Source of the DNA: an uncultured Merdimonas sp.
GTDB taxonomy: Bacteria > Bacillota > Clostridia > Lachnospirales > Lachnospiraceae
DNA length: 55,759 nucleotides
NCBI GenBank assembly: GCA_944378225.1
Contig: CALWGE010000010.1
Coordinates: 1 to 55,759 of the forward strand
Direction of reading: 5' to 3'
Both the position numbers and the translations under genes were made by a program. Position 1 is the first letter of the stretch, and each line of letters starts with the position of its first letter. The notes beneath the pieces were generated by a model. That model had not been told where the DNA came from. It saw only the letters and a program-made list of their open reading frames with translations, and ran no database searches. Below are positions 34,244-47,097 of this stretch, piece after piece.

Positions 34244-34586
34244 GCAGGTAAGGCAGGTGTTCGCGGCTGACAGGACCGAAAGGGGTCAGGTGAGGAAAGT
34301 CCGGGCTCCACAGGGCAGGACGCCGGATAACGTCCGGTGGAGGTAACTCCAAGGAAAGTGCAACAGAAATATACCGCCAGGAAACTGGTAAGGGTGGAAG
34401 GGCAGTGTAAGAGACTACCGCCCGCCTGGTAACAGGCGGGGCATATGTAAACCCCGTCCGGAGCAAGACCGAAACGAGACATAAGCCTGCCCGGCTGTCT
34501 CAGGTAGGTTGCTTGACTCTGCCGGTAACGGCAGAGCTGGATAGATGAACACCCACGACATAACCCGGCTTATCGCTTTGCCTGCA
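34244..34586 (+). ncRNA. rnpB: RNase P RNA (class A)
   Basis: The universally conserved blocks are present in order: GAGGAAAGTCCGGGCTCC (CR-I), ACAGAAATATACCGCC, the CCGGAGCAAGACC region, and GATAGATGAACACCC with ACCCGGCTTAT (CR-V). The P1 helix closes between GCAGGTAAG (34244) and CTTTGCCTGC (to 34585). It is the catalytic RNA that trims tRNA 5' ends. End points are good to a few bases. Confidence 0.95.
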
Positions 34587-34592
34587 AAAGAA

Positions 34593-36658: not shown

Positions 36659-36979
36659 CTGAATTTTTGGCAGTATGATTGAAAAAGCAAGGAGCTGATG
36701 CAAACAGGTGAAATTATCATCTGCGGAGCAGAGGCTCCTTTGTTTTAATTTCAGACATAAAATCAGGATGCCTGTTTTCAGGCATCCTGCAGTTATTGTG
36801 AGGGAGTGGGGCTTTCTTTTGGAAAGCCCCTGAGTGTTATGAATGAAATACTGATATGTGTTCCTGCTACGATATATACTATATCAGAGAATTAAGTCTA
36901 AACTGTGTACAGACTCTAAAAAAAGTATAATCAGGATTAAGAATTTCTTAGGGAAACGGAAAGAAAACCGGAAGACGGC
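36659..36979. other. Intergenic region with three hairpins between convergent pyrI and the racemase gene
   Basis: No gene seen in 320 bases. Hairpins: AAGGAGC/GCTCCTT (36689-36740) with a TTGTTTTAATTT tail, likely the pyrBI terminator. CAGGATGCCTG-TTTT-CAGGCATCCTG (36764-36789), T-rich on the minus side, a terminator candidate for the van operon. GGGGCTTTC/GAAAGCCCC (36808-36830), without a T tract. Confidence 0.65.
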
Positions 36980-38131
36980 TTATATCTCTCTGATATGCAG
37001 TCTGCAGAGAAGTTCGTTTGTGATAGTATCTGCCTTTTCAGCCATTTCTTCGGCCCGAAGAGTTTGATGACCCTGTGAGCCAAGAAAAGTCACTATGTCG
37101 CCGGGGCGTGCTTCCGGTATGCCGGTTACATCGATAATAAGCTGATCCATGCAGATGTTTCCGATGACGTGAGTGCGGCGATCCCGGACCAGGACGGGAA
37201 GATTTTTTCCGGACAGGCTGCGGGGCAGTCCGTCGGCGTAGCCGATAGTTACTGCTGCCGCGCGCATAGGGGTGTCTGCCTGAAAATGACGTCCGTAGCT
37301 TACAGTTTCACCCGATTTTAAATCCCGGATTGAGGAGATCCGTGCACGGAGAGAGAGAACGGGTTTCAGCGGCACGCGTTCCAGCAGTTGTTTATCCGGA
37401 CTGCTCAATACTCCATACATGGCAATACCGAAACGGGCATAATCCATGGACAAATCCGGATAATTCAGGACACCATAGCTGCTCTGCAGATGAAGCTTTC
37501 CCGGATCACAGCCCTTTTCCCGCAGAAGCTCCGCTGTGCGGAGAAAAGAGGAGATCTGCATTCTGGTAAAAAGAATATCATCAATATCCCGGCTGTCCGC
37601 TGCGCACAGGTGAGAATACATGCCAAGAATGCGAAGTCCTGGCAGGGAAAAGAGAGAGGACAGTGCCTCAATGTGTTCTGCGCGCTCTCCCAGTCTGTGC
37701 ATTCCGGTATCGATTTTCAGATGGACCTTGACGGGGTAGGGAGCAGAAGCATTCAGAGCTCTTGCATGAGCGCAGTCAACTGCTGTCTGTATCAGATCAT
37801 TGGCAGTCAGAAGATATGCTTCCTGGGGAGGCGTATAGCCCAGAACCAGAATTTCGCCCTGAATTCCGGCCTGACGCAGCTCTGTACCTTCCTGCACGGT
37901 AGCCACAGCGAAGGCACGTATACCGATCCGGTTCAGCCAGGAGGCTACAGGTACTGCGCCATGACCGTAGGCGTCAGCCTTTACCACTGCCATAAAAGTA
38001 CAGTTTTCGGGCAGAAGAGATGAGAGATGTTCCACATTCCATTTCAGATTTTCATAGTTCAGTTCTTTCCAGGCCCGTCGTTCCGGCATAAGCCGGACGA
38101 TCATGGCATCGGAACTGATTTTTGTGATCAT
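36980..38131 (-). CDS. vanTr: VanT racemase part: alanine-racemase-like serine racemase
   Basis: 383 residues. PLP-binding K51 lies in 'VVKADAYGHG', and 'SYGRHF' and 'TIGYADGLPR' carry the other conserved alanine-racemase residues. Its place as the last gene of a vanG-vanXY cluster, directly after a membrane acyltransferase, says it supplies D-Ser for the D-Ala-D-Ser ligase. In VanG and C. difficile clusters the two parts are one ~700-residue protein; in the Enterococcus VanL cluster they are split into vanTm and vanTr. Here the gene has its own AGGAGG 7 nt before the ATG, so the split looks functional. A housekeeping Alr role cannot be excluded. Confidence 0.85.
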   Translation of the reverse strand: MITKISSDAMIVRLMPERRAWKELNYENLKWNVEHLSSLLPENCTFMAVVKADAYGHGAVPVASWLNRIGIRAFAVATVQEGTELRQAGIQGEILVLGYTPPQEAYLLTANDLIQTAVDCAHARALNASAPYPVKVHLKIDTGMHRLGERAEHIEALSSLFSLPGLRILGMYSHLCAADSRDIDDILFTRMQISSFLRTAELLREKGCDPGKLHLQSSYGVLNYPDLSMDYARFGIAMYGVLSSPDKQLLERVPLKPVLSLRARISSIRDLKSGETVSYGRHFQADTPMRAAAVTIGYADGLPRSLSGKNLPVLVRDRRTHVIGNICMDQLIIDVTGIPEARPGDIVTFLGSQGHQTLRAEEMAEKADTITNELLCRLHIREI

Positions 38132-38155
38132 AAAATTTCCTCCTGTTCATTGTAT

Positions 38156-39277
38156 TTATGAGGTTATGTTTATCCGCTTTCTGCGGATAAAATCCAACAG
38201 TACAGCCAGCAGCCAGGCACCTGCAAAGGAAGAAACCGCCACTGCCAGAAAGTGCAGAAGACTGTTTTCGACAAACAGGTCAAGGCTGGTTACTCCGGCG
38301 AATCCCCGGACCAGAATCAGGAAGAGCGGATGCAGCAGATAGATAAAAAGCGGAAGATCTGCCGGGAGCCGTTTCATTGGATCCGGACCCTGAACATCCA
38401 GCAGAATGCAGAACAGAAAATACATCAGCGGGACGAGTGTCAGATACATGCTGTCATGTCTCGGAACATCCAGAATTTTCAATGTAATGCCTTCTGTCAG
38501 AAACAGGGCAGAACAGATAGCAAAGCCTGCCAGTTTAAGAGAAAAGCATGGGGGATATTGCCCGGGAAGAGAGATGGTTCTTTCGGGTTTTTCTGCCTTC
38601 CCTAAGGCCTGATACTGCAGGAAAATCACATAACCCAGCATCAGGAAAACCGGTGTGAAAAACAGGCCGTTTCGTGTATAGCTGGAAATGTGAAAAATCC
38701 CCTGATACAGTTTTTGAATAAAAGAACCATCTTTCAGGAAGCCATAATAGCTGTCTCCGGGCAGACCCATCATATACAGAAGAAGAGAAAGAATGCAGAC
38801 GGCTTTCACAGGCAGGTATCTGAGTCCTGTCCATACGATGGCGAAACCCAGCAGCAGAGCAGGCAGATACCAGAGGTGATAAAAGGTTCCGTCCATAAAA
38901 ATCATTTTCAGAACCTTTCCGGGGCCGGCATCCCGAAACTGTCCGGCATAGAGATTTACAGGAAGATACAGGACTATGGATACAAGATAAATGAGGCCGA
39001 TACGTTTCAGATAGAGCAGACCGCGGTGTGTGTCAGCCAGTGCTTTTGGCAGTACAAAAAAACCGGTTACCATAAAGAAGAAGGGTACGGCAGTGCGGGC
39101 AAGGATCCGGGTCAGAACGAAGTCCGCTTCCGGGTTCAGGGAAGTCAGAGGTGATGTATGAATCATGATGACAAAGAGGGCAGCCAGCAGCTTAAAACAG
39201 TTTATACCTGGATAGATATGTTTTCGGGCTGCTGCCTGCCCCGGAACTGCAGCACCCGTCTTTTTCTGTATCGTCAT
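38156..39277 (-). CDS. vanTm: VanT membrane part: acyltransferase-3 family protein
   Basis: 373 residues with about ten membrane segments and the acyltransferase_3 N-terminus ('FKLLAALFVIMIHTSP', where the His is typical). This matches the N-terminal half of VanT, thought to move serine across or to the membrane. It ends 24 nt before the racemase gene. AAAGGAG precedes the start. Other acyltransferase-3 proteins O-acetylate surface sugars, but the operon context supports VanTm. Confidence 0.8.
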   Translation of the reverse strand: MTIQKKTGAAVPGQAAARKHIYPGINCFKLLAALFVIMIHTSPLTSLNPEADFVLTRILARTAVPFFFMVTGFFVLPKALADTHRGLLYLKRIGLIYLVSIVLYLPVNLYAGQFRDAGPGKVLKMIFMDGTFYHLWYLPALLLGFAIVWTGLRYLPVKAVCILSLLLYMMGLPGDSYYGFLKDGSFIQKLYQGIFHISSYTRNGLFFTPVFLMLGYVIFLQYQALGKAEKPERTISLPGQYPPCFSLKLAGFAICSALFLTEGITLKILDVPRHDSMYLTLVPLMYFLFCILLDVQGPDPMKRLPADLPLFIYLLHPLFLILVRGFAGVTSLDLFVENSLLHFLAVAVSSFAGAWLLAVLLDFIRRKRINITS

Positions 39278-39300
39278 ACCAGATTTTTCTCCTTTCCACG

Positions 39301-40053
39301 TTATTTCCAGAGTGTGACAATGCAGCCTCCTGTGTTGGTGCCCGAAACCTGGAAGGGAAGGCTGGATGGCAGCGTCAGAGTAACAGAGCCGTCCTGCGGA
39401 TCTGTTTTCTGATAAAATATTTCAAAACTTTTATTCAGAATGCTGATTTCAAGGTGTTTTCCTACGGATGGGAACAGACTCAGATAATCTATGTATTCCT
39501 CAAGACAGAGGTTGTGCAGCTTCATGATTGCAGCGTGGGGAGTTCCTACATAGCGGAAATGCCAGGGCTCTGCTGCAATTCCGGTGATACCCTCTCTGTC
39601 TTCCGGATATCGTTCTACAAACCCATAGGAAATCATTTTTTCCCGAAACTGTTCGCAGATACCATCACGTGGGAAAAAGGGGCGGATAAAGTCTACAGGC
39701 TGCTGATTGAGGGACAGATCTATGGCAAGCCCTGTCTGATGTTCGCTGCAGTCAGGCAGCGCTACATATTTTCCTGTAAAATCCGCTCCGTTTTCTGCCA
39801 GAGAAGAAGCGTAGATCTGTTTCTGCTCTGTGAGCGTCCGGTAGCCGCTGACCGGAAGCAGGGAGGAGGCGCATCCCAGAGCTTTAAAGAGATTTTCCAG
39901 CACAAGAGCAGTCCGTCGTTCCAGAAGAATTCCGGAGTCCAGGAAGGGGGTCAGTCTTTCCGGAGCCACACACTCAGGAAGAGGATGACGGGCATTTACG
40001 AGGAGCAGACTGCCCCGGTTCAGGGCAGCCTGTGTCAGAGTGATCGTCTTCAT
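39301..40053 (-). CDS. vanXY: D,D-peptidase VanXY type (peptidase M15B)
   Basis: 250 residues without signal peptide or membrane span, as expected for a cytoplasmic VanXY. Zinc site: H105 and D112 in 'SEHQTGLAID' and E162/H165 in 'EPWH'. It hydrolyses D-Ala-D-Ala dipeptide and the terminal D-Ala of pentapeptide precursors, removing the vancomycin target. It overlaps vanG by 4 nt (ATGA), so the two are tightly coupled. Confidence 0.88.
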   Translation of the reverse strand: MKTITLTQAALNRGSLLLVNARHPLPECVAPERLTPFLDSGILLERRTALVLENLFKALGCASSLLPVSGYRTLTEQKQIYASSLAENGADFTGKYVALPDCSEHQTGLAIDLSLNQQPVDFIRPFFPRDGICEQFREKMISYGFVERYPEDREGITGIAAEPWHFRYVGTPHAAIMKLHNLCLEEYIDYLSLFPSVGKHLEISILNKSFEIFYQKTDPQDGSVTLTLPSSLPFQVSGTNTGGCIVTLWK

Positions 40054-41117
40054 GGCTCCACCGCCAGACGGATCAGGGCATCCACAATTTCTTCAAAAGT
40101 CATGCCGATGCCTTTCAGCATGCTTGGGTAACGGCTGTGTGTGGTGAAGCCGGGAATTGTGTTTACTTCGTTGAAAACAATCCTCTTGTCCGGAGTCAGA
40201 AACATGTCCACCCGGGCAAATCCTTTACAGGACAGAATGCGGTAAATACGGGCAGCTGTTTCCCTGATACGTTCTGCTGTCTCAGCATCGATACGGGCCG
40301 GACAGTGAATGCGGGATGTTTTGAGGGTGTACTTTTCCGTATAGTCAAAAAATCCGGAAGAAAGTTCTATTTCATCTACTTCTCCGATGATAAGGTTTCC
40401 GTTTCCGAGAATTGCGCAGCCCGCTTCAAATCCGGGGACAGCTTCTTCAACCAGTACCGAATCATCATGTACAAAAGCCTGACTGATGGCTTTGTCCAGT
40501 TCTGCGGGGGTCTCGATCCGGGTGATGCCAAAGGATGAACCGGCCTTTACAGGTTTGACAAACAATGGATAACGCAGATGCTCTGTCATGGAAAATTCTT
40601 CAGCTTCTGTGGGCATTCGACGGAAAAGTACGGATTTTGGAACTTCAATGCCATCCAGGTTTACCAATGTATGTGCCAGATGCTTGTCCATTCCGAGAAC
40701 GGAAGCTTCCATGCCGCAGCCTGCCACAGGCAGACCGGCAAGCTCGCACAGTCCCTGTATTGTTCCATCTTCACCGTTCTTGCCGTGCAGTACCGGAAAT
40801 ACGGCGTCCAGACGAACAAGTTCCACGCCGCCTGTGCGCAGAATCAGAAGTCCGTGATCCGTGCGGTTAGGAGAAAGCATGGCCGGAAGACAGTCAGCGG
40901 AAGCCCAGGTATCTTCGGGAATTCTGTCAATATCGCCTTCATAGCTGAGCCAGGTTCCTTCTCTGGTGATTCCTACAAGATGTATTTCATACTTTTCCTG
41001 ATTCAAATGTGTAATTACAGAATAGGCAGACTGAAGAGATACTTCATATTCTGTTGAGCAGCCGCCGAAAAGAATCGCAACGGCAGTTTTATCTTTTGCT
41101 GTGTTTGTACTCATCAT
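40050..41117 (-). CDS. vanG: D-Ala-D-Ser ligase, VanG type
   Basis: 355 residues, D-Ala-D-X ligase fold of ATP-grasp enzymes. 'GGCSTEYEVSLQSA', 'VFPVLHGKNGEDGT' and 'IELSSGFFDYTEKYTLK' closely match what I recall of VanG; the EKYTLK omega-loop is that of Ser-type ligases. It joins D-Ala to D-Ser so the cell wall ends in D-Ser, with lower vancomycin affinity. Start at 41117 (a second ATG at 41114), with AAAGGA upstream. Expected to be controlled from the promoter at 41143-41196. Confidence 0.92.
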   Translation of the reverse strand: MMSTNTAKDKTAVAILFGGCSTEYEVSLQSAYSVITHLNQEKYEIHLVGITREGTWLSYEGDIDRIPEDTWASADCLPAMLSPNRTDHGLLILRTGGVELVRLDAVFPVLHGKNGEDGTIQGLCELAGLPVAGCGMEASVLGMDKHLAHTLVNLDGIEVPKSVLFRRMPTEAEEFSMTEHLRYPLFVKPVKAGSSFGITRIETPAELDKAISQAFVHDDSVLVEEAVPGFEAGCAILGNGNLIIGEVDEIELSSGFFDYTEKYTLKTSRIHCPARIDAETAERIRETAARIYRILSCKGFARVDMFLTPDKRIVFNEVNTIPGFTTHSRYPSMLKGIGMTFEEIVDALIRLAVEP

Positions 41118-41142
41118 AATTTCATTCCTTTCTAACAGTTAC

Positions 41143-41196
41143 AGTATAAGATGGGTCAGTGACAGAACAGTGACTATTCTGTGACAATTCTGTCAT
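41143..41196 (-). promoter_or_regulatory. vanG promoter with four-repeat operator (probable VanR site)
   Basis: On the minus strand TATACT lies at 41148-41143. Upstream, GTCAC occurs three times at exact 11-bp spacing (plus-strand GTGAC at 41159, 41170, 41181), and a fourth, degenerate copy starts at 41192. The array covers the -35 region expected near 41166-41171, where the sequence is poor. Tandem repeats over a weak -35 are the usual binding pattern of OmpR-family activators such as VanR. Confidence 0.7.
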
Positions 41197-41223
41197 TTCA
41201 AGTGTACTGGTGTATGTTCGTGA

Positions 41224-41275
41224 AAAAAGGCCGGCGGCCGCAGCGGGAAACCCGCGCCGGCTGTCCGGCCTTTTT
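41224..41275. terminator. Terminator between vanS and vanG
   Basis: GC-rich stem AAAAAGGCCGG...CCGGCCTTTTT with an inner GCGGG/CCCGC pair. It separates the regulatory vanRS unit from the resistance genes and has A/T tracts on both sides. Confidence 0.82.
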
Positions 41276-41364
41276 ACCCGTCCGTTTTATTGTAACGGGG
41301 AAAAAGAAATGATGTCTGTAGATTTCGTGATGAGAGGCTTAAGAAAAACTTGCGAAGTGTTTAG

Positions 41365-42510
41365 TTATTTCGAAACTGCAGGAAGACAGATTGTAAATAC
41401 GGTTCCTTCTTCACCGCTTGAAGCGGAGATGGTTCCCTGATGCGCTGTGACAATTTCTTTTGCTATGGCAAGTCCAAGTCCTGCACCTCCCGTAGCAGAA
41501 GAACGCGCTGAATCCAGACGATAAAATTTTTCAAAAATAGCGTTCAGCTGTTCCGGAGGAATCTGCGGTCCCTGGTTGGTAAAAGTAATGCAGACAGTTT
41601 TCTGTTCCTGCTGCGCGTGAATTTCTATTACTGTGTTGGGATAGCTGTAAGCGGCGGCGTTTTTCAGAATATTATTGAATACACGGGCCAGCTTGTCGGG
41701 ATCGCCGTATAAAATCAGGTCCTCCGGTACATCCAGGTGGACAGATTTTCCGCCGGGTGTCAGAATCGGATAAAATTCTTCCGCCATCTGCATCAGCATA
41801 TACGAGAGATGGATATTTTCCCGGTTCAGAGGTATGCTTTGCAGATTGAAACGGGTGATTTCAAAAAATTCATTGATGAGCTGCTCCAGACGATAAGCCT
41901 TGTCCAGTGTGATGGAAAGGTATTTGGCCCGCTGCTCCAGAGGAAGATCCGGGGCCTCTTTCATAAGTTCCAGATAACCGATGACTGAGGTAAGAGGCGT
42001 ACGGATATCGTGAGCCAGATAAACTACCAGATCATTTTTCCGCTGTTCTGCTTCCCGTGCTTCCCGCTCTCTTTTTTCCAGAATGGTTTTGGATTCATTC
42101 AGCTTCAGCTCCAGAAATCCCATTTCCGGAGAAAGCGTAATGAGCTCTGTTTTTTCATCCAGAAGGGCGTCGCAGCCTGCTGAAATTTCATCAAAATATT
42201 CCCTGACCCAGCGCAGGGAAAAGCGGAACACAATAATCAGAGAAATGATAATTGCCCCGGCAATGATATTGTCCAGATGGTCGCGGAAGGTAGCTTCATA
42301 AATATAAAGAGCATCCGAATAATCCAGATGAAAAACTCCTGTCAGAAAAGCTACCACTGCGTCTCCGAAGCGTCCGCGGATCAGTTCACGAAGCAGAAAA
42401 ATGGCTCCGATAGAGATCAGAACCAGAGACAGCATTTTCCGTGTCATTTTTCTTTCAAACAGCACATAGCTGCTTTTTCGTCTTATGTTTTTTTCGTTAT
42501 TCTCATTCAA
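41365..42510 (-). CDS. vanS: VanS-type sensor histidine kinase
   Basis: 381 residues. Two membrane segments (about 25-41 and 82-98) enclose a short extracellular loop, followed by a HAMP-like linker, the phospho-accepting H167 in 'YLAHDIRTPL' and a HATPase domain ending in 'GLGLAIAKEIV'. The short loop fits VanS proteins of D-Ser clusters. It overlaps vanR by 8 nt. Confidence 0.85.
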   Translation of the reverse strand: MNENNEKNIRRKSSYVLFERKMTRKMLSLVLISIGAIFLLRELIRGRFGDAVVAFLTGVFHLDYSDALYIYEATFRDHLDNIIAGAIIISLIIVFRFSLRWVREYFDEISAGCDALLDEKTELITLSPEMGFLELKLNESKTILEKREREAREAEQRKNDLVVYLAHDIRTPLTSVIGYLELMKEAPDLPLEQRAKYLSITLDKAYRLEQLINEFFEITRFNLQSIPLNRENIHLSYMLMQMAEEFYPILTPGGKSVHLDVPEDLILYGDPDKLARVFNNILKNAAAYSYPNTVIEIHAQQEQKTVCITFTNQGPQIPPEQLNAIFEKFYRLDSARSSATGGAGLGLAIAKEIVTAHQGTISASSGEEGTVFTICLPAVSK

Positions 42511-43201
42511 TTTTGTATCCTACTCCCCATACAGTTTTAATATATCTGGGCTTTTCACTGGAATCATGCATTTTTTCCCGCAGATGGCGGATGTGCACCA
42601 TAATGGTGTTGTTGTTGCTGCTATAGTATTTTTCTCCCCAGACGTCATAGAACAGACGGTCAGAGCTTACAACTTCTCCGCGGTTTTTACAGAGACTCCA
42701 GAGAATGGAAAATTCCGTGGGAGTCAGAGACAGTGGCTTTTCATCCAGCGTACAGGTGTGATCCCGCTTGTTTATAACAAGCCCTGAAATTGTAATGCAG
42801 TCCTGATCCTCTTCTTTGGCGGCAGTATTATATTTGGTAAAACGGCGCAGCTGTGCCTTGACCCGGGCGATGAGTTCCAGTGGTCGGAAAGGTTTGGTCA
42901 TGTAGTCATCTGCCCCCAGGGTGAGTCCGGTGATTTTATCGATCTCCTCATCCTTGGCTGTGAGCATGATGATCGGAAAGTTCTGATTTTCCCGGATTTT
43001 CTGGCAGATAGTAAAACCGCTCATATCCGGCAGCATCACATCCAGTACAGCCAGATCCGGAGTCTCCTGTCCGAGCCAGTCCAGAGCATCGGTTCCGTTG
43101 TAAAATTTGTGTACTTCATAGGATTCGTTGGTAAGATATAGTTCAATCAGATCGGCGATTTCTTTTTCGTCGTCAACTACTAAGATTTTTGCTTCGGTCA
43201 T
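42503..43201 (-). CDS. vanR: VanR-type OmpR-family response regulator
   Basis: 232 residues: a receiver domain with acidic pocket D10-D11, phospho-acceptor D54 in 'VLDVMLPD' and Lys near 103, then a winged-helix DNA-binding domain ending in 'TVWGVGYKIE'. It should be activated by the neighbouring kinase and bind the repeats at 41159-41196. Confidence 0.88.
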   Translation of the reverse strand: MTEAKILVVDDEKEIADLIELYLTNESYEVHKFYNGTDALDWLGQETPDLAVLDVMLPDMSGFTICQKIRENQNFPIIMLTAKDEEIDKITGLTLGADDYMTKPFRPLELIARVKAQLRRFTKYNTAAKEEDQDCITISGLVINKRDHTCTLDEKPLSLTPTEFSILWSLCKNRGEVVSSDRLFYDVWGEKYYSSNNNTIMVHIRHLREKMHDSSEKPRYIKTVWGVGYKIE

Positions 43202-44403: not shown

Positions 44404-44436
44404 TTTCGGGGAAAACGCAGATAAAAAATGAAATTT

Positions 44437-44516
<80 letters not shown>

Positions 44517-44520
44517 TCAC

Positions 44521-44567
44521 ATCGAGTGTTCATAACGGATTTCAGTTATGAACACTTGATTTTTTTG
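44521..44567 (+). terminator. Terminator after tRNA-Leu
   Basis: 16-bp stem (44521-44536 with 44545-44560, one G-U pair), 8-nt loop and TTTTTT. Confidence 0.9.
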
Positions 44568-44661
44568 TATCAATCGGTTTTCTCAATATGTATGGAGCAG
44601 GTGTCACGCCTGCTCCTTTGCTCTATGCGGACTTGGTGATATACTTGACCGCAACGCCCTT

Positions 44662-45040
44662 TCAGGCATCCGGTTTGTAGTTTTCTCCGCGTTCCGGAAG
44701 CTCTATGATCCCGATAAACTTGTAGTGAATCACGAACCGCTGGCTTCTGTTTTTGCCTGTTCCTTCCATTTCATAGACCGTGATTTTATCGAACAGTTCC
44801 CGCAGCATAGGTGCAGTCAGCGTTTCCATCTCCATAAACTGTCTTACTGTCCGAATAAATTGCTTCTTGTTCTGCTGCATGGTATCAATAGAATTGAGTT
44901 TCTCACGAAGTTTGGAAATCCTGCTTTTCAGTTCCATACGCTCAACCTCATACTTGTGAAATAGCTGCATAAACCACACTCGTCCATCATCTTTTCCGGT
45001 TGCGTTATCTTCGTACAGCTTTTTATAATGGGAAAAAACT
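44662..45040 (-). pseudogene. 3' remnant of a large serine recombinase (TndX/TnpX type)
   Basis: The frame encodes the C-terminal coiled region and DUF4368-like end of transposon-type large serine recombinases: 'YKKLYEDNATGKDDGR', 'LTAPMLRELFDKITVYE' and 'RFVIHYKFIGII'. It reads back to about 45040, where it runs into a T-rich stretch and a hairpin (45059-45078) rather than the catalytic domain. The ~350-residue catalytic part is gone. It shows that an integrative element once sat beside tRNA-Leu. Confidence 0.8.
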
Positions 45041-45045
45041 GAAAA

Positions 45046-45078
45046 AGCAAAAAGAATAGCCCGCCGGTTTTGACGGGC
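45046..45078 (-). terminator. Stranded minus-strand terminator
   Basis: GCCCG/CGGGC hairpin (45059-45078) followed on the minus strand by TATTCTTTTTGCTTTTT. No gene now lies upstream of it on that strand, so it probably belonged to a deleted gene. Confidence 0.5.
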
Positions 45079-45215
45079 ATACTTTCGATATTAAAAATAT
45101 AATCCATTTCCCAAAATGCAGCGAACCTATACATATCGGTTGAATAATTTACCGAAAATTACTATAATAAAACATAACATTATGGATTTTGTCGTTTATC
45201 GGGAGATTATATGTT

Positions 45216-45443
45216 ATGGCAATCGGTTATAAAAGGCTATGGAAACTGCTGATAGATAAAGATATGAAGAAAAAAGATCTGGAACAGGCGGCGGGCATCA
45301 GTCATTACACCATTGGAAAATTGAACCGTGGTGACAATGTCACTACTGAGGTGCTGGCAAAAATTTGCATTGCTCTTGATTGTACAATGAATGATATTAT
45401 GGAGAACATTCCGGAGCAAACGGATAAGACAACGAAGGAATAA
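45216..45443 (+). CDS. XRE-family regulator (HTH_26 type)
   Basis: 75 residues, one Cro/C1-type helix-turn-helix: 'KKKDLEQAAGISHYTIGKLNRGDNVTTEVLAKIC'. Common as a small regulator in mobile elements and next to restriction genes. It ends 2 nt before the hsdM remnant, so it once controlled that system. GGGAG lies 10 nt before ATG 45216; a longer reading from 45189 lacks a site. Confidence 0.85.
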   Translation: MAIGYKRLWKLLIDKDMKKKDLEQAAGISHYTIGKLNRGDNVTTEVLAKICIALDCTMNDIMENIPEQTDKTTKE

Positions 45444-45445
45444 CA

Positions 45446-46067
45446 ATGGTACGGACAGCAAAACCGAAAAAAGAAGTATCTATGGAGGAAGCACTCTGGA
45501 AAAATGCGGATAAGTTTCGTGGTTCGGTAGAGCCTGCGGAGTATAAGTATGTTGTCCTGAGCCTGTTTTTTCTGAAATTCGCCGGTGATATATTTGACGT
45601 GCAGAAGAAAATGATTGCAAAGCAGTACGGCGAAAAATTTATGGACACGGTGGCATTCTACACGAAGGACAATGTTTTCTACCTGCCGGAGGAAAGCCGC
45701 TGGTCCTATCTTATGGAAAAGGCCAAGCAGGACGATATTGCCCTGAAAATAGATACTGCTCTTTATACGATTGAGAAAAAACAATCCGGCGCTGAAAGGC
45801 GTTCTGCCGGACAACTATTATTCTCGTCTGCATATCGACACAACAAAGCTTGCTTCCCTGCCGGACGCGATCAACCGTATCAACACCGACGATAAAAAGA
45901 ATGACATTTGGATACTGAAAAAAACAAAAAGGCCCGTGTTGTGGAGTAGAACGGACAGCTCAAGTGTTACTGTGACAGAGAGCGGGAAATTCTCTTTATG
46001 GATTTGCGTACAGGGGCAGTCCCTACGAGAAAAAGTCCAAAGCAGAGTTGAAGAATTAAGCCGTTAA
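45446..46067 (+). pseudogene. Frameshifted and truncated type I restriction methylase (hsdM)
   Basis: The first frame encodes the HsdM N-terminal helical domain ('LWKNADKFRGSVEPAEYKYV', 'LSLFFLKF'). At the A6 run 45776-45781 the match moves to another frame ('PALKGVLPDNYYSRLHIDTTK'); one A fewer restores the frame. Homology stops after about residue 150; the sequence that follows is unrelated debris, and the SAM-binding NPPY domain is missing. No hsdS or hsdR is present. Confidence 0.82.
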
Positions 46068-46098
46068 ATTATCATTTAATCACAAAAGGAGAAAAACT

Positions 46099-46836
46099 AT
46101 GGCAAAAATTAGTGTTGATATTGAGAATATTAAAAAGGGTTTACATAATATTGGGTATGAAATCAGTGACTGCATTCAAAGAGAAAACAACGGTATAAAC
46201 TGGCAGTTAAAATTCAATAACAGCGGAGCCATTGTAACAATTTACGATTCAAATAAAATGAAGAATTCTGTCGTAAATGGAAAACCTGATGATGGAGAAA
46301 AAGAAAAATTAAAAGAAATTGTAGAGGGACTTAAATGCAACGAATTAGTAATAGATCCATTGAATTCGGAAATTGTTGACTTAATCCGAGCACGAAAAGA
46401 AGATTATTTTTATGACTTTAAGCAGATACCACATCAGGATAAAGAGAGCTTACTTCACGATATTTTATGTCTTTCAAATAATGTTGAAAATAAGGACGCA
46501 TATCTGATACTAGGAGTTGCAGATGACTATTCGGTAGTTGGAGTAGATGATAGTATAAAATCAAATAATATTTTTGATTTTCTCAAAACACTAAGTTTTG
46601 CAGGTGATAAGGTGCCGGAGATTTCTGTGTTTGAATTGTTTTATACATATAAGAAAATCGTCGTAATTAAATGTAAAAGGTCAAAGAATGTTCCATTTTA
46701 CTTGACAAAGAGATATAAGGGAATTAATGATCATCAAATTTATACTCGTGTTGGAGACACAAATACTCCTAAAAATGGTCATGCGAATTATAGTGATGTA
46801 GAAAAATTATGGAAGATTCATTTTAGTGAGGAGTGA
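46099..46836 (+). CDS. AlbA_2 (Schlafen-like) domain protein
   Basis: 245 residues. 'EDYFYDFKQIPHQDKESLLHDILCLSNN' (about 108-135) and 'AYLILGVADDYSVVGVDDS' are the AlbA_2/Schlafen motif set. The first ~80 residues look like a small separate domain. AlbA_2 proteins bind nucleic acids and often sit in defence or mobile regions; the function here is unknown. Base composition is clearly AT-richer than the housekeeping genes, a sign of transfer. AAAAGGAG precedes the ATG. Appears intact. Confidence 0.75.
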   Translation: MAKISVDIENIKKGLHNIGYEISDCIQRENNGINWQLKFNNSGAIVTIYDSNKMKNSVVNGKPDDGEKEKLKEIVEGLKCNELVIDPLNSEIVDLIRARKEDYFYDFKQIPHQDKESLLHDILCLSNNVENKDAYLILGVADDYSVVGVDDSIKSNNIFDFLKTLSFAGDKVPEISVFELFYTYKKIVVIKCKRSKNVPFYLTKRYKGINDHQIYTRVGDTNTPKNGHANYSDVEKLWKIHFSEE

Positions 46837-47026
46837 CTACTACGCGGAACTTTCTGTTATATTTTCATGCTTGGAAAGTGTGGATATTTCGACAACTTAT
46901 GCTATAATTCTTCAGGAAAGTATCAGATTCAGAGTTAGGCATTCCAGGGATTTTTTTGCTATAACGAGAGGAAGTGCCGCTCAACCATCTATTTTGATGA
47001 TTTTGCGACACTCCTGATAGATTCAA
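46837..47026. other. AT-rich tail of the island up to tRNA-Gly
   Basis: No gene can be supported. A TGC-TATAAT extended -10 box (46900-46908) is on the plus strand. At about 46962-47020 one frame reads as a short protein-like stretch ('CRSTIYFDDFATLLID'), perhaps debris of a lost gene. Confidence 0.4.
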
Positions 47027-47097
47027 AGCAGATAACGGGAATCGAACCCGCCTCTCCAGCTTGGGAAGCTAGCGTTCTACCGATGAACTATATCTGC
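47027..47097 (-). tRNA. tRNA-Gly (anticodon CCC)
   Basis: On the minus strand: acceptor GCAGATA/TATCTGC with discriminator U, anticodon stem CTAGC/GCTGG around TTCCCAA (anticodon CCC), T loop TTCGATT. CCA is not encoded. 71 nt. Confidence 0.93.

What the first reader, a model, noticed from the sequence alone, without database searches (positions are those of the whole stretch)
36980..43201. VanG-type glycopeptide-resistance cluster with VanT split into two genes
Gene order vanR-vanS-(terminator)-vanG-vanXY-vanTm-vanTr is read directly. The ligase is VanG-like, yet the serine racemase is two genes with separate ribosome sites, an arrangement I know from the Enterococcus VanL cluster rather than VanG. 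No vanW, vanY or vanU and no mobility genes lie close by, and flanks are housekeeping genes, so it may be an old resident cluster of a gut anaerobe. Whether it gives resistance is not known.
Basis: partly seen in the sequence, partly recalled or inferred. Interest (0 to 1): 0.75.

Follow-up and report, generated by a model that had tools for sequence, protein, structure and literature searches.

The report
VanG cluster with split serine racemase
This is a long-resident set of genes, probably of a gut bacterium, that likely lets it end its cell-wall building blocks in D-serine, the change that weakens vancomycin binding, and its serine racemase is made as two proteins, which gives a handle on the unexplained membrane half.

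Summary
In detail: vanR, vanS, terminator, vanG, vanXY, vanTm, vanTr on the minus strand.

The split is not exceptional. Of 397 family genomes searched, 69 have the ligase; of 61 with a linked VanTm, 34 are fused, 25 separate, 2 odd. In the window's genus the ligase is in 16 of 16 genomes, and Tm and Tr are separate in the window and 14 of 14 testable loci: an old resident.

Most interesting is VanTm, whose role is recorded as open. Over 63 sequences most TmAT/AT3 acyl-CoA-site positions are kept, fused or split, but TMH3 RxxR is not. Its model matches HGSNAT, weakly. Some clusters lack VanTm; one genome has it in an unlinked vanR-vanS-vanTm unit. The racemase keeps a VanTG-type Asn in 68 of 68 sequences covering it. 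Resistance is untested.

The parts
42503..43201 (-). vanR, OmpR-type response regulator
   Evidence: 390.6 bits to NCBIfam vanR_ACDEGLN, cut-off 350; Response_reg + Trans_reg_C
41365..42510 (-). vanS, histidine kinase (TTG start, overlaps vanR)
   Evidence: 392.9 bits to NCBIfam HK_VanS_ACDEFG, cut-off 400, i.e. just under; HisKA + HATPase_c
41224..41275 (-). terminator between regulatory and resistance operons
   Evidence: fold -40.5 kcal/mol, z -4.84
41159..41185 (-). three GTCAC direct repeats with an 11-bp period, probable VanR-type activator site
   Evidence: three GTCA(C/T) at the same spacing in 14 of 15 fetched loci of the genus; which protein binds is inferred
41143..41148 (-). TATACT, probable -10 of the resistance promoter
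   Evidence: sequence and alignment; inferred
40050..41117 (-). vanG, D-Ala--D-Ser ligase
   Evidence: 549.9 bits to NCBIfam VanG, cut-off 495; nearest solved structure 4fu0; EKY motif; apart from Ddl in the tree
39301..40053 (-). vanXY, D,D-dipeptidase/D,D-carboxypeptidase
   Evidence: VanY Pfam; nearest solved structure 4f78; best NCBIfam model vanXY_G at 224.2 bits, under its cut-off of 500
38156..39277 (-). vanTm, separate membrane part of VanT (AT3/PF01757)
   Evidence: AlphaFold2 pLDDT 89.4, pTM 0.89; TmAT motif positions
36980..38131 (-). vanTr, separate serine racemase catalytic subunit
   Evidence: 506.4 bits to NCBIfam vanT-G-Cterm, cut-off 460; nearest solved structure 4ecl; Asn372 where Alr has Tyr
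36764..36789 (.). hairpin between the convergent pyrI and vanTr, probable shared terminator
   Evidence: inferred

Best explanation
A chromosomal, genus-resident VanG-family cluster that rebuilds peptidoglycan stems to end in D-Ala-D-Ser. VanS senses cell-wall attack and phosphorylates VanR, which activates the promoter between vanS and vanG. VanTr turns L-Ser into D-Ser, VanG joins D-Ala to D-Ser, VanXY removes D-Ala-D-Ala dipeptide and the terminal D-Ala, and MurF adds the new dipeptide. VanTm is a separately made AT3-family membrane protein that works beside the racemase; it either feeds it L-Ser or is an acyltransferase of the cell surface. Shown here: the genes, their families, specificity residues, conserved promoter repeats and the genus-wide split. 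Inferred from the known VanC/VanG pathway: the enzyme activities, VanR binding, inducibility and any resistance.
For: Curated NCBIfam cut-offs passed for VanG, VanT-G catalytic and VanR. Nearest solved structures of G, XY and Tr are 4fu0, 4f78 and 4ecl. Ligase tree (window, 27 of the 80 relatives, 2 plasmid vanG, 3 D-Lac ligases, 4 Ddl) puts the window with the vanG rows, all Van rows being separated from Ddl (99/97), with EKY in all 30 vanG-type rows and in none of the 7 others. Racemase Asn in 68 of 68 aligned sequences that cover the position (2 of 70 have a gap), own Alr has Tyr. Separate Ddl and Alr. Ligase in 16 of 16 genus genomes, own included, one of them partial at a contig end, with conserved order and flanks. 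Triple GTCA(C/T) repeat in window and 14 of 15 genus loci.
Against: VanXY and VanS fall under their curated cut-offs (224.2 vs 500; 392.9 vs 400). In the ligase tree the vanG rows against the D-Lac rows have only 65/94 support, and three Ddl rows, the genome's own among them, sit on very long branches. No phenotype or transcript data exist here. One genus locus (L115) lacks the promoter repeats. van-labelled genes need not give resistance: Blautia producta DSM 2950 carried vanTG and other CARD-labelled van genes yet was vancomycin-sensitive (PMC8146736, passages); in C. difficile the role of vanG was disputed, and evolved vanT mutations could not be shown to cause resistance, although vanRS mutations that derepress the cluster lower susceptibility (PMC11326576, passages). 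VanTG may also racemise Ala (recalled).
Confidence: 0.85

Rival explanations
1. VanTm is an L-serine permease that channels substrate to the racemase; the AT3 likeness is only ancestral scaffold.
For: The published proposal, cited as such in PMC9558356 and used in PMC6182600. VanTm was linked to the ligase in 61 of 62 family genomes that had both. The TMH3 RxxR motif of acyltransferases is not kept; position 92 is basic in 59 of 62 and the other basic positions vary.
Against: TMH1 His, FxxxxG and TMH9 Tyr of the acyl-CoA site are invariant where present, and the TMH1 basic residue is R or K in 62 of 62. The six best Foldseek matches are HGSNAT, an acetyl-CoA transferase (probability 0.77-0.99); no other match among the 50 shown of 192 exceeds 0.14. 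Weaker VanTm-like hits in four genomes lie in loci of which three show glycosyltransferase-like frames (labels are mine from reading the frames).
Confidence: 0.45
2. Ordinary housekeeping D-Ala metabolism: the ligase is a Ddl and the racemase the cell's Alr.
For: Same protein superfamilies.
Against: Separate Ddl (C18) and Alr (C17) exist; ligase and racemase carry the D-Ser-type residues.
Confidence: 0.03
3. A recently acquired mobile resistance cluster.
For: DUF4368, hsdM and AlbA_2 frames between tRNA-Leu and tRNA-Gly next door; elsewhere in the family a vanG cluster lies near a large serine-recombinase-like frame (L131, by reading). The ligase is patchy in the family (69 of 397).
Against: Ligase in all 16 genus genomes; same gene order in the fetched loci and pyrI beyond vanTr in 8 of 15; the closest ligase outside the genus among the 80 loci is 64% identical.
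Confidence: 0.05
4. The cluster is expressed but serves something other than vancomycin resistance, such as response to cell-wall stress or D-Ser use in its habitat.
For: Genus-wide presence; van-labelled genes without resistance in Blautia producta; disputed value of vanG in C. difficile.
Against: VanRS, the D-Ser ligase and VanXY match the resistance design; no direct test here.
Confidence: 0.3

Closest known systems
Enterococcus faecalis VanG operon (BM4518)
   Same: VanG ligase, VanXY, VanT catalytic domain, separate regulatory and resistance operons, three tandem activator repeats at the resistance promoter (PMC4405338, passages)
   Different: No vanY or vanW beside it, no vanU in the operon, VanT split, repeat sequence differs from the published VanR-G consensus
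Enterococcus faecalis VanL cluster
   Same: Membrane and racemase halves as two genes, vanTm and vanTr (names seen in a figure legend of PMC11597547; the link to VanL is from NCBIfam model names, and recall)
   Different: Ligase is VanG, not VanL (549.9 vs 289.6 bits; VanL cut-off 750)
Clostridioides difficile vanG cluster
   Same: vanRS plus vanG, vanXY, vanT in a gut anaerobe (PMC11326576, passages)
   Different: VanT there has AT3 and racemase in one protein (PMC12423673, passages; that its example Q186I3 is the C. difficile protein is recalled)
TmAT/AT3 acyltransferases (OafB, HGSNAT)
   Same: VanTm is Pfam PF01757 with an all-helical predicted fold, TMH1 His, FxxxxG, TMH9 Tyr
   Different: TMH3 RxxR not kept; TMH1 Arg is Lys in 13 of 62, window included; activity untested

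Membership tests
VanG-type D-Ala-D-Ser cluster | Ligase of the VanG family | tested here: met
   549.9 bits, cut-off 495; tree
VanG-type D-Ala-D-Ser cluster | VanXY D,D-peptidase | tested here: inconclusive
   Nearest solved structure is 4f78, with SEHQTGLAID and EPWHFRYVG aligned, but 224.2 bits against a cut-off of 500 and 205.1 against 250
VanG-type D-Ala-D-Ser cluster | Serine racemase catalytic domain with Asn at the specificity site | tested here: met
   506.4 bits, cut-off 460; Asn372. Functional meaning of this Asn (Asn696 of VanTG) is recalled
VanG-type D-Ala-D-Ser cluster | VanR and VanS | tested here: inconclusive
   VanR 390.6 bits over its cut-off of 350; VanS 392.9 just under 400
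Enterococcal vanG operon sensu stricto | vanU before vanRS, vanY and vanW before vanG | tested here: not met
   None between vanR and vanG; VanU-like frame only at 45189-45443, 76.4 bits of 150; VanW domain only on another contig; VanY not searched genome-wide
Enterococcal vanG operon sensu stricto | VanT as one protein | tested here: not met
   Separate frames in window and 14 of 14 genus loci
VanG-type D-Ala-D-Ser cluster | Makes D-Ala-D-Ser precursors on glycopeptide exposure | not testable with these tools
   needs enzyme assay and mass spectrometry
VanL cluster | VanL ligase | tested here: not met
   289.6 bits, cut-off 750
Housekeeping Ddl/Alr | Only Ddl and Alr of the genome | tested here: not met
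   second Ddl and second Alr found
TmAT/AT3 acyltransferase (VanTm) | TMH1 DxxRx10H | tested here: inconclusive
   In the family H 62 of 62, R or K 62 of 62 (K in 13), D 59 of 62; the window itself reads N26xxK29x10H40, i.e. only the His unchanged
TmAT/AT3 acyltransferase (VanTm) | TMH2 FxxxxG and TMH9 Tyr | tested here: met
   62 of 62 and 63 of 63
TmAT/AT3 acyltransferase (VanTm) | TMH3 RxxR | tested here: not met
   position 92 basic in 59 of 62, other basic positions variable
TmAT/AT3 acyltransferase (VanTm) | Acyl transfer activity | not testable with these tools
   needs assay

The most novel reading that the evidence does not exclude
VanTm is not a serine permease but an acyl-CoA-dependent transmembrane acyltransferase that VanRS regulates as its own module: made as a free protein in this genus, sitting in an unlinked vanR-vanS-vanTm unit in one genome, and lost in some lineages. 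It would carry an acyl group across the membrane onto the new wall, in the boldest form onto the D-Ser hydroxyl of D-Ala-D-Ser stems, adding a second layer against glycopeptide binding.
Probability: 0.3. Interest if true: 0.75.

Novelty: new variant of a known kind. Interest (0 to 1): 0.42.

Why it matters
Two papers of the held library say the AT3 half of VanT has no established role (PMC9558356, passages; PMC12423673, passages). A genus in which that half is a separate protein, beside relatives in which it is fused, absent or unlinked, lets the two halves be removed and assayed one at a time. It also shows a D-Ser-type cluster as a standing part of one genus (16 of 16 genomes; a member is titled Merdimonas, which NCBI places in Lachnospiraceae), which bears on where such genes come from.

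Tried and rejected
Housekeeping Ddl/Alr: rejected. Frameshift artefact for the split: rejected. Recent mobile import: unlikely. One single origin of the split: not favoured, since on the racemase tree of 70 sequences the split label needs at least 6 changes (2 forced by starred branches) and racemase-only needs 10, which is no fewer than shuffled labels; direction of change cannot be told. That tree was a quick one with 23 of 68 inner branches open. Rows dropped before it: of 73 loci with a racemase (window included), 3 with incomplete racemases (L012, L013, L070).

Led nowhere: paper searches on split VanT with VanG (of the 20 papers listed only two reviews held vanTm and vanTr; none); on vanG in gut commensals (listings, from which I opened passages only); Merdimonas with vancomycin (listing only); ligase in phage records (22 records, all under 60% identity, not followed). 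No VanC, VanE, VanL or VanN sequence was put in the ligase tree; for those I rely on NCBIfam scores. A second AlphaFold job was not used.

Results against the acyltransferase reading: RxxR not kept; the window's own TMH1 motif has lost Asp and Arg (N, K); Foldseek E-values weak (best 0.056, none under 0.001); the test that 4 of 7 literature-named positions fall among 31 strictly invariant ones of 343 gives P 0.0016, but my mapping of the TMH3 and TMH6 positions is by eye. Conserved residues may be structural.

Racemase-only genomes: 9 of the 11 such loci were searched with the VanTm profile; 7 had no hit at 1e-5, 1 (L073) only a weak AT3 hit, 1 (L059) a strong VanTm on another contig; three genomes that should have it (L014, L021, window) rang. 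L053 and L070 were not searched. Completeness of these genomes is not told. In L018 the racemase frame keeps a weak VanTm-like stretch (18.5 bits), so there the loss looks partial.

Full report
WHAT IS THERE. Six intact frames on the minus strand in the order vanR, vanS, terminator, vanG, vanXY, vanTm, vanTr. NCBIfam cut-offs are passed by the ligase (VanG 549.9 of 495), the racemase (vanT-G-Cterm 506.4 of 460) and VanR (390.6 of 350); VanS is just under (392.9 of 400), VanXY well under (224.2 of 500), and VanTm under both VanT models it matches (239.1 of 900, 152.5 of 675). Nearest solved structures are 4fu0 for the ligase, 4f78 for VanXY and 4ecl for the racemase. I recall these as VanG, VanXYG and the VanTG catalytic domain of E. 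faecalis; the printed molecule names are generic.

SUBSTRATE RESIDUES. The ligase carries FFDYTEKYTL; EKY is present in all 30 vanG-type rows of the tree and in none of the three D-Lac ligases or four Ddl (27 of the 80 relatives were given to that tree). In it the vanG rows sit on one side of a branch (65/94 support only), and all Van rows are separated from Ddl (99/97); three Ddl rows are on long branches. The racemase has Asn372 where Geobacillus-type Alr (1bd0; organism recalled) has Tyr; Asn is found in 68 of 68 of the aligned racemases that cover the position (2 of 70 have a gap there), and the genome's own Alr has Tyr. That this Asn sets serine specificity is recalled from work on VanTG (Asn696); the paper was not held.

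HOUSEKEEPING TEST. A second Ddl lies on contig 18 and a second Alr on contig 17.

HOW OLD. The ligase is in 16 of 16 genomes of the genus, own included. Of 15 loci fetched, 14 hold both vanTm and vanTr, and in all 14 they are separate frames, -50 to +185 nt apart by alignment. Gene order is kept in the loci that are not cut; pyrI lies beyond vanTr in 8 of 15 (in L106 2.9 kb away), the CmpB-like frame beyond vanR in 12 of 15, up to 5 kb away, and tRNA-Leu in 6 of 15. The closest named relative is a contig titled uncultured Merdimonas sp. (L005, 90%), a genus of Lachnospiraceae; gut origin is inferred from that name. In the wider family 69 of 397 genomes have the ligase at 1e-100, so it is patchy there.

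HOW COMMON IS THE SPLIT. In the family sample, 62 of the 69 ligase genomes also have VanTm, 61 of them linked: 34 fused, 25 separate, 2 odd; 7 lack it; 3 genomes have only weaker VanTm-like hits and no ligase. Among the 80 relatives: 39 fused, 22 split, 11 racemase only, 1 VanTm only, 7 neither (several at contig ends) (its printed tally of 23 split includes the window). On the racemase tree of 70 the split label needs at least 6 changes, shuffled mean 19.0. The window and its four genus relatives there are one split clade (99).

VANTM. Pfam calls it Acyl_transf_3. Mean column identity is 39% over 59 sequences. Over 63 sequences the positions named for the TmAT superfamily in PMC12423673 (passages) read: TMH1 Asp 59 of 62, Arg/Lys 62 of 62 (Lys in 13), His 62 of 62, FxxxxG 62 of 62, TMH9 Tyr 63 of 63; RxxR is not kept. 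The pattern is alike in fused and split forms, although three split forms (window, L005, L027) have lost the Asp. AlphaFold2 gives pLDDT 89.4, pTM 0.89. Foldseek's six best PDB matches are all HGSNAT (probability 0.77-0.99, E 0.056-0.42); none reaches 0.001. The role of this half is stated as unknown in PMC9558356 and unconsidered in PMC12423673, the proposal being L-Ser transport.

VANTM COMES AND GOES. Of 11 racemase-only loci, the genomes of 9 were searched with the VanTm profile: 7 had nothing, 1 only a weak AT3 hit, 1 a strong VanTm on another contig. In that one (L125) vanTm lies 41 nt behind vanS in a vanR-vanS-vanTm set (VanR 61%, VanS 46%, VanTm 38% identical to the window's), while the 21 kb around that genome's vanG-vanTr (L059) show neither vanR nor vanS, nor vanXY. 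The same place appears as G323, 91% complete and 1% contaminated, so a binning error is possible but not indicated. Six of these genomes were searched for the racemase, and each has another Alr-like gene.

CONTROL. Between vanS and vanG three GTCA(C/T) repeats at exactly 11 bp stand in the window and 14 of 15 genus loci, followed by a TATACT-like box. A scan of the loci then held gave 38 matches, many of them copies of the same place, just before vanG except one in L072 about 950 bp before it; as the loci are centred on the cluster, this is not a genome-wide test. Tandem 11-bp sites suit an OmpR-class regulator, but the sequence is not the published VanR-G consensus; the binder is inferred.

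VERDICT. A real, intact, old VanG-family cluster. The split is a common variant rather than a curiosity. Its value is as a clean way to test what the AT3 half of VanT does. I found no paper describing VanG with split VanT (in a library that lacks most subscription papers), though NCBI's model name 'VanT catalytic subunit' suggests curators have met it. On re-checking, only details changed; the odds are as first set.

Noticed in passing
window 44436-47097: Remnant island between tRNA-Leu and tRNA-Gly: DUF4368 fragment, HTH_26 frame, HsdM N-terminal fragment and AlbA_2 frame.
   Followed up: partly
window 45189-45443: Small XRE frame resembling VanU (76.4 bits, cut-off 150), directly before the hsdM fragment.
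   Followed up: partly
window about 41285-41380 and upstream of vanR at about 43385: A second conserved block with CTTAAG or close to it and, further on, a TACAAT/TATACT-like box, shared by the vanS 3' region and many vanR upstream regions of the genus (CTTAAG itself upstream of vanR in 12 of 15 examined, window included); in the vanS-vanG gap it lies before the terminator, so its purpose is unclear.
   Followed up: partly
L125 6026-8899: Unlinked vanR-vanS-vanTm unit in a genome whose vanG-vanTr lies on another contig.
   Followed up: partly
L126 5893-8765 and L131 4142-10048: One genome has a second vanXY-vanTm-vanTr set away from its full cluster; the full cluster lies about 2 kb from a large serine-recombinase-like frame (that label by reading).
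   Followed up: no
L045 2933-5132: vanG followed by vanTm with no vanTr found nearby.
   Followed up: no
L127, L128, L129, L130: Distant VanTm-like AT3 frames (24-29% identity to the window's), three of the four loci with glycosyltransferase-like frames nearby (labels by reading).
   Followed up: no
window 34245-34588: Bacterial RNase P class A RNA.
   Followed up: no
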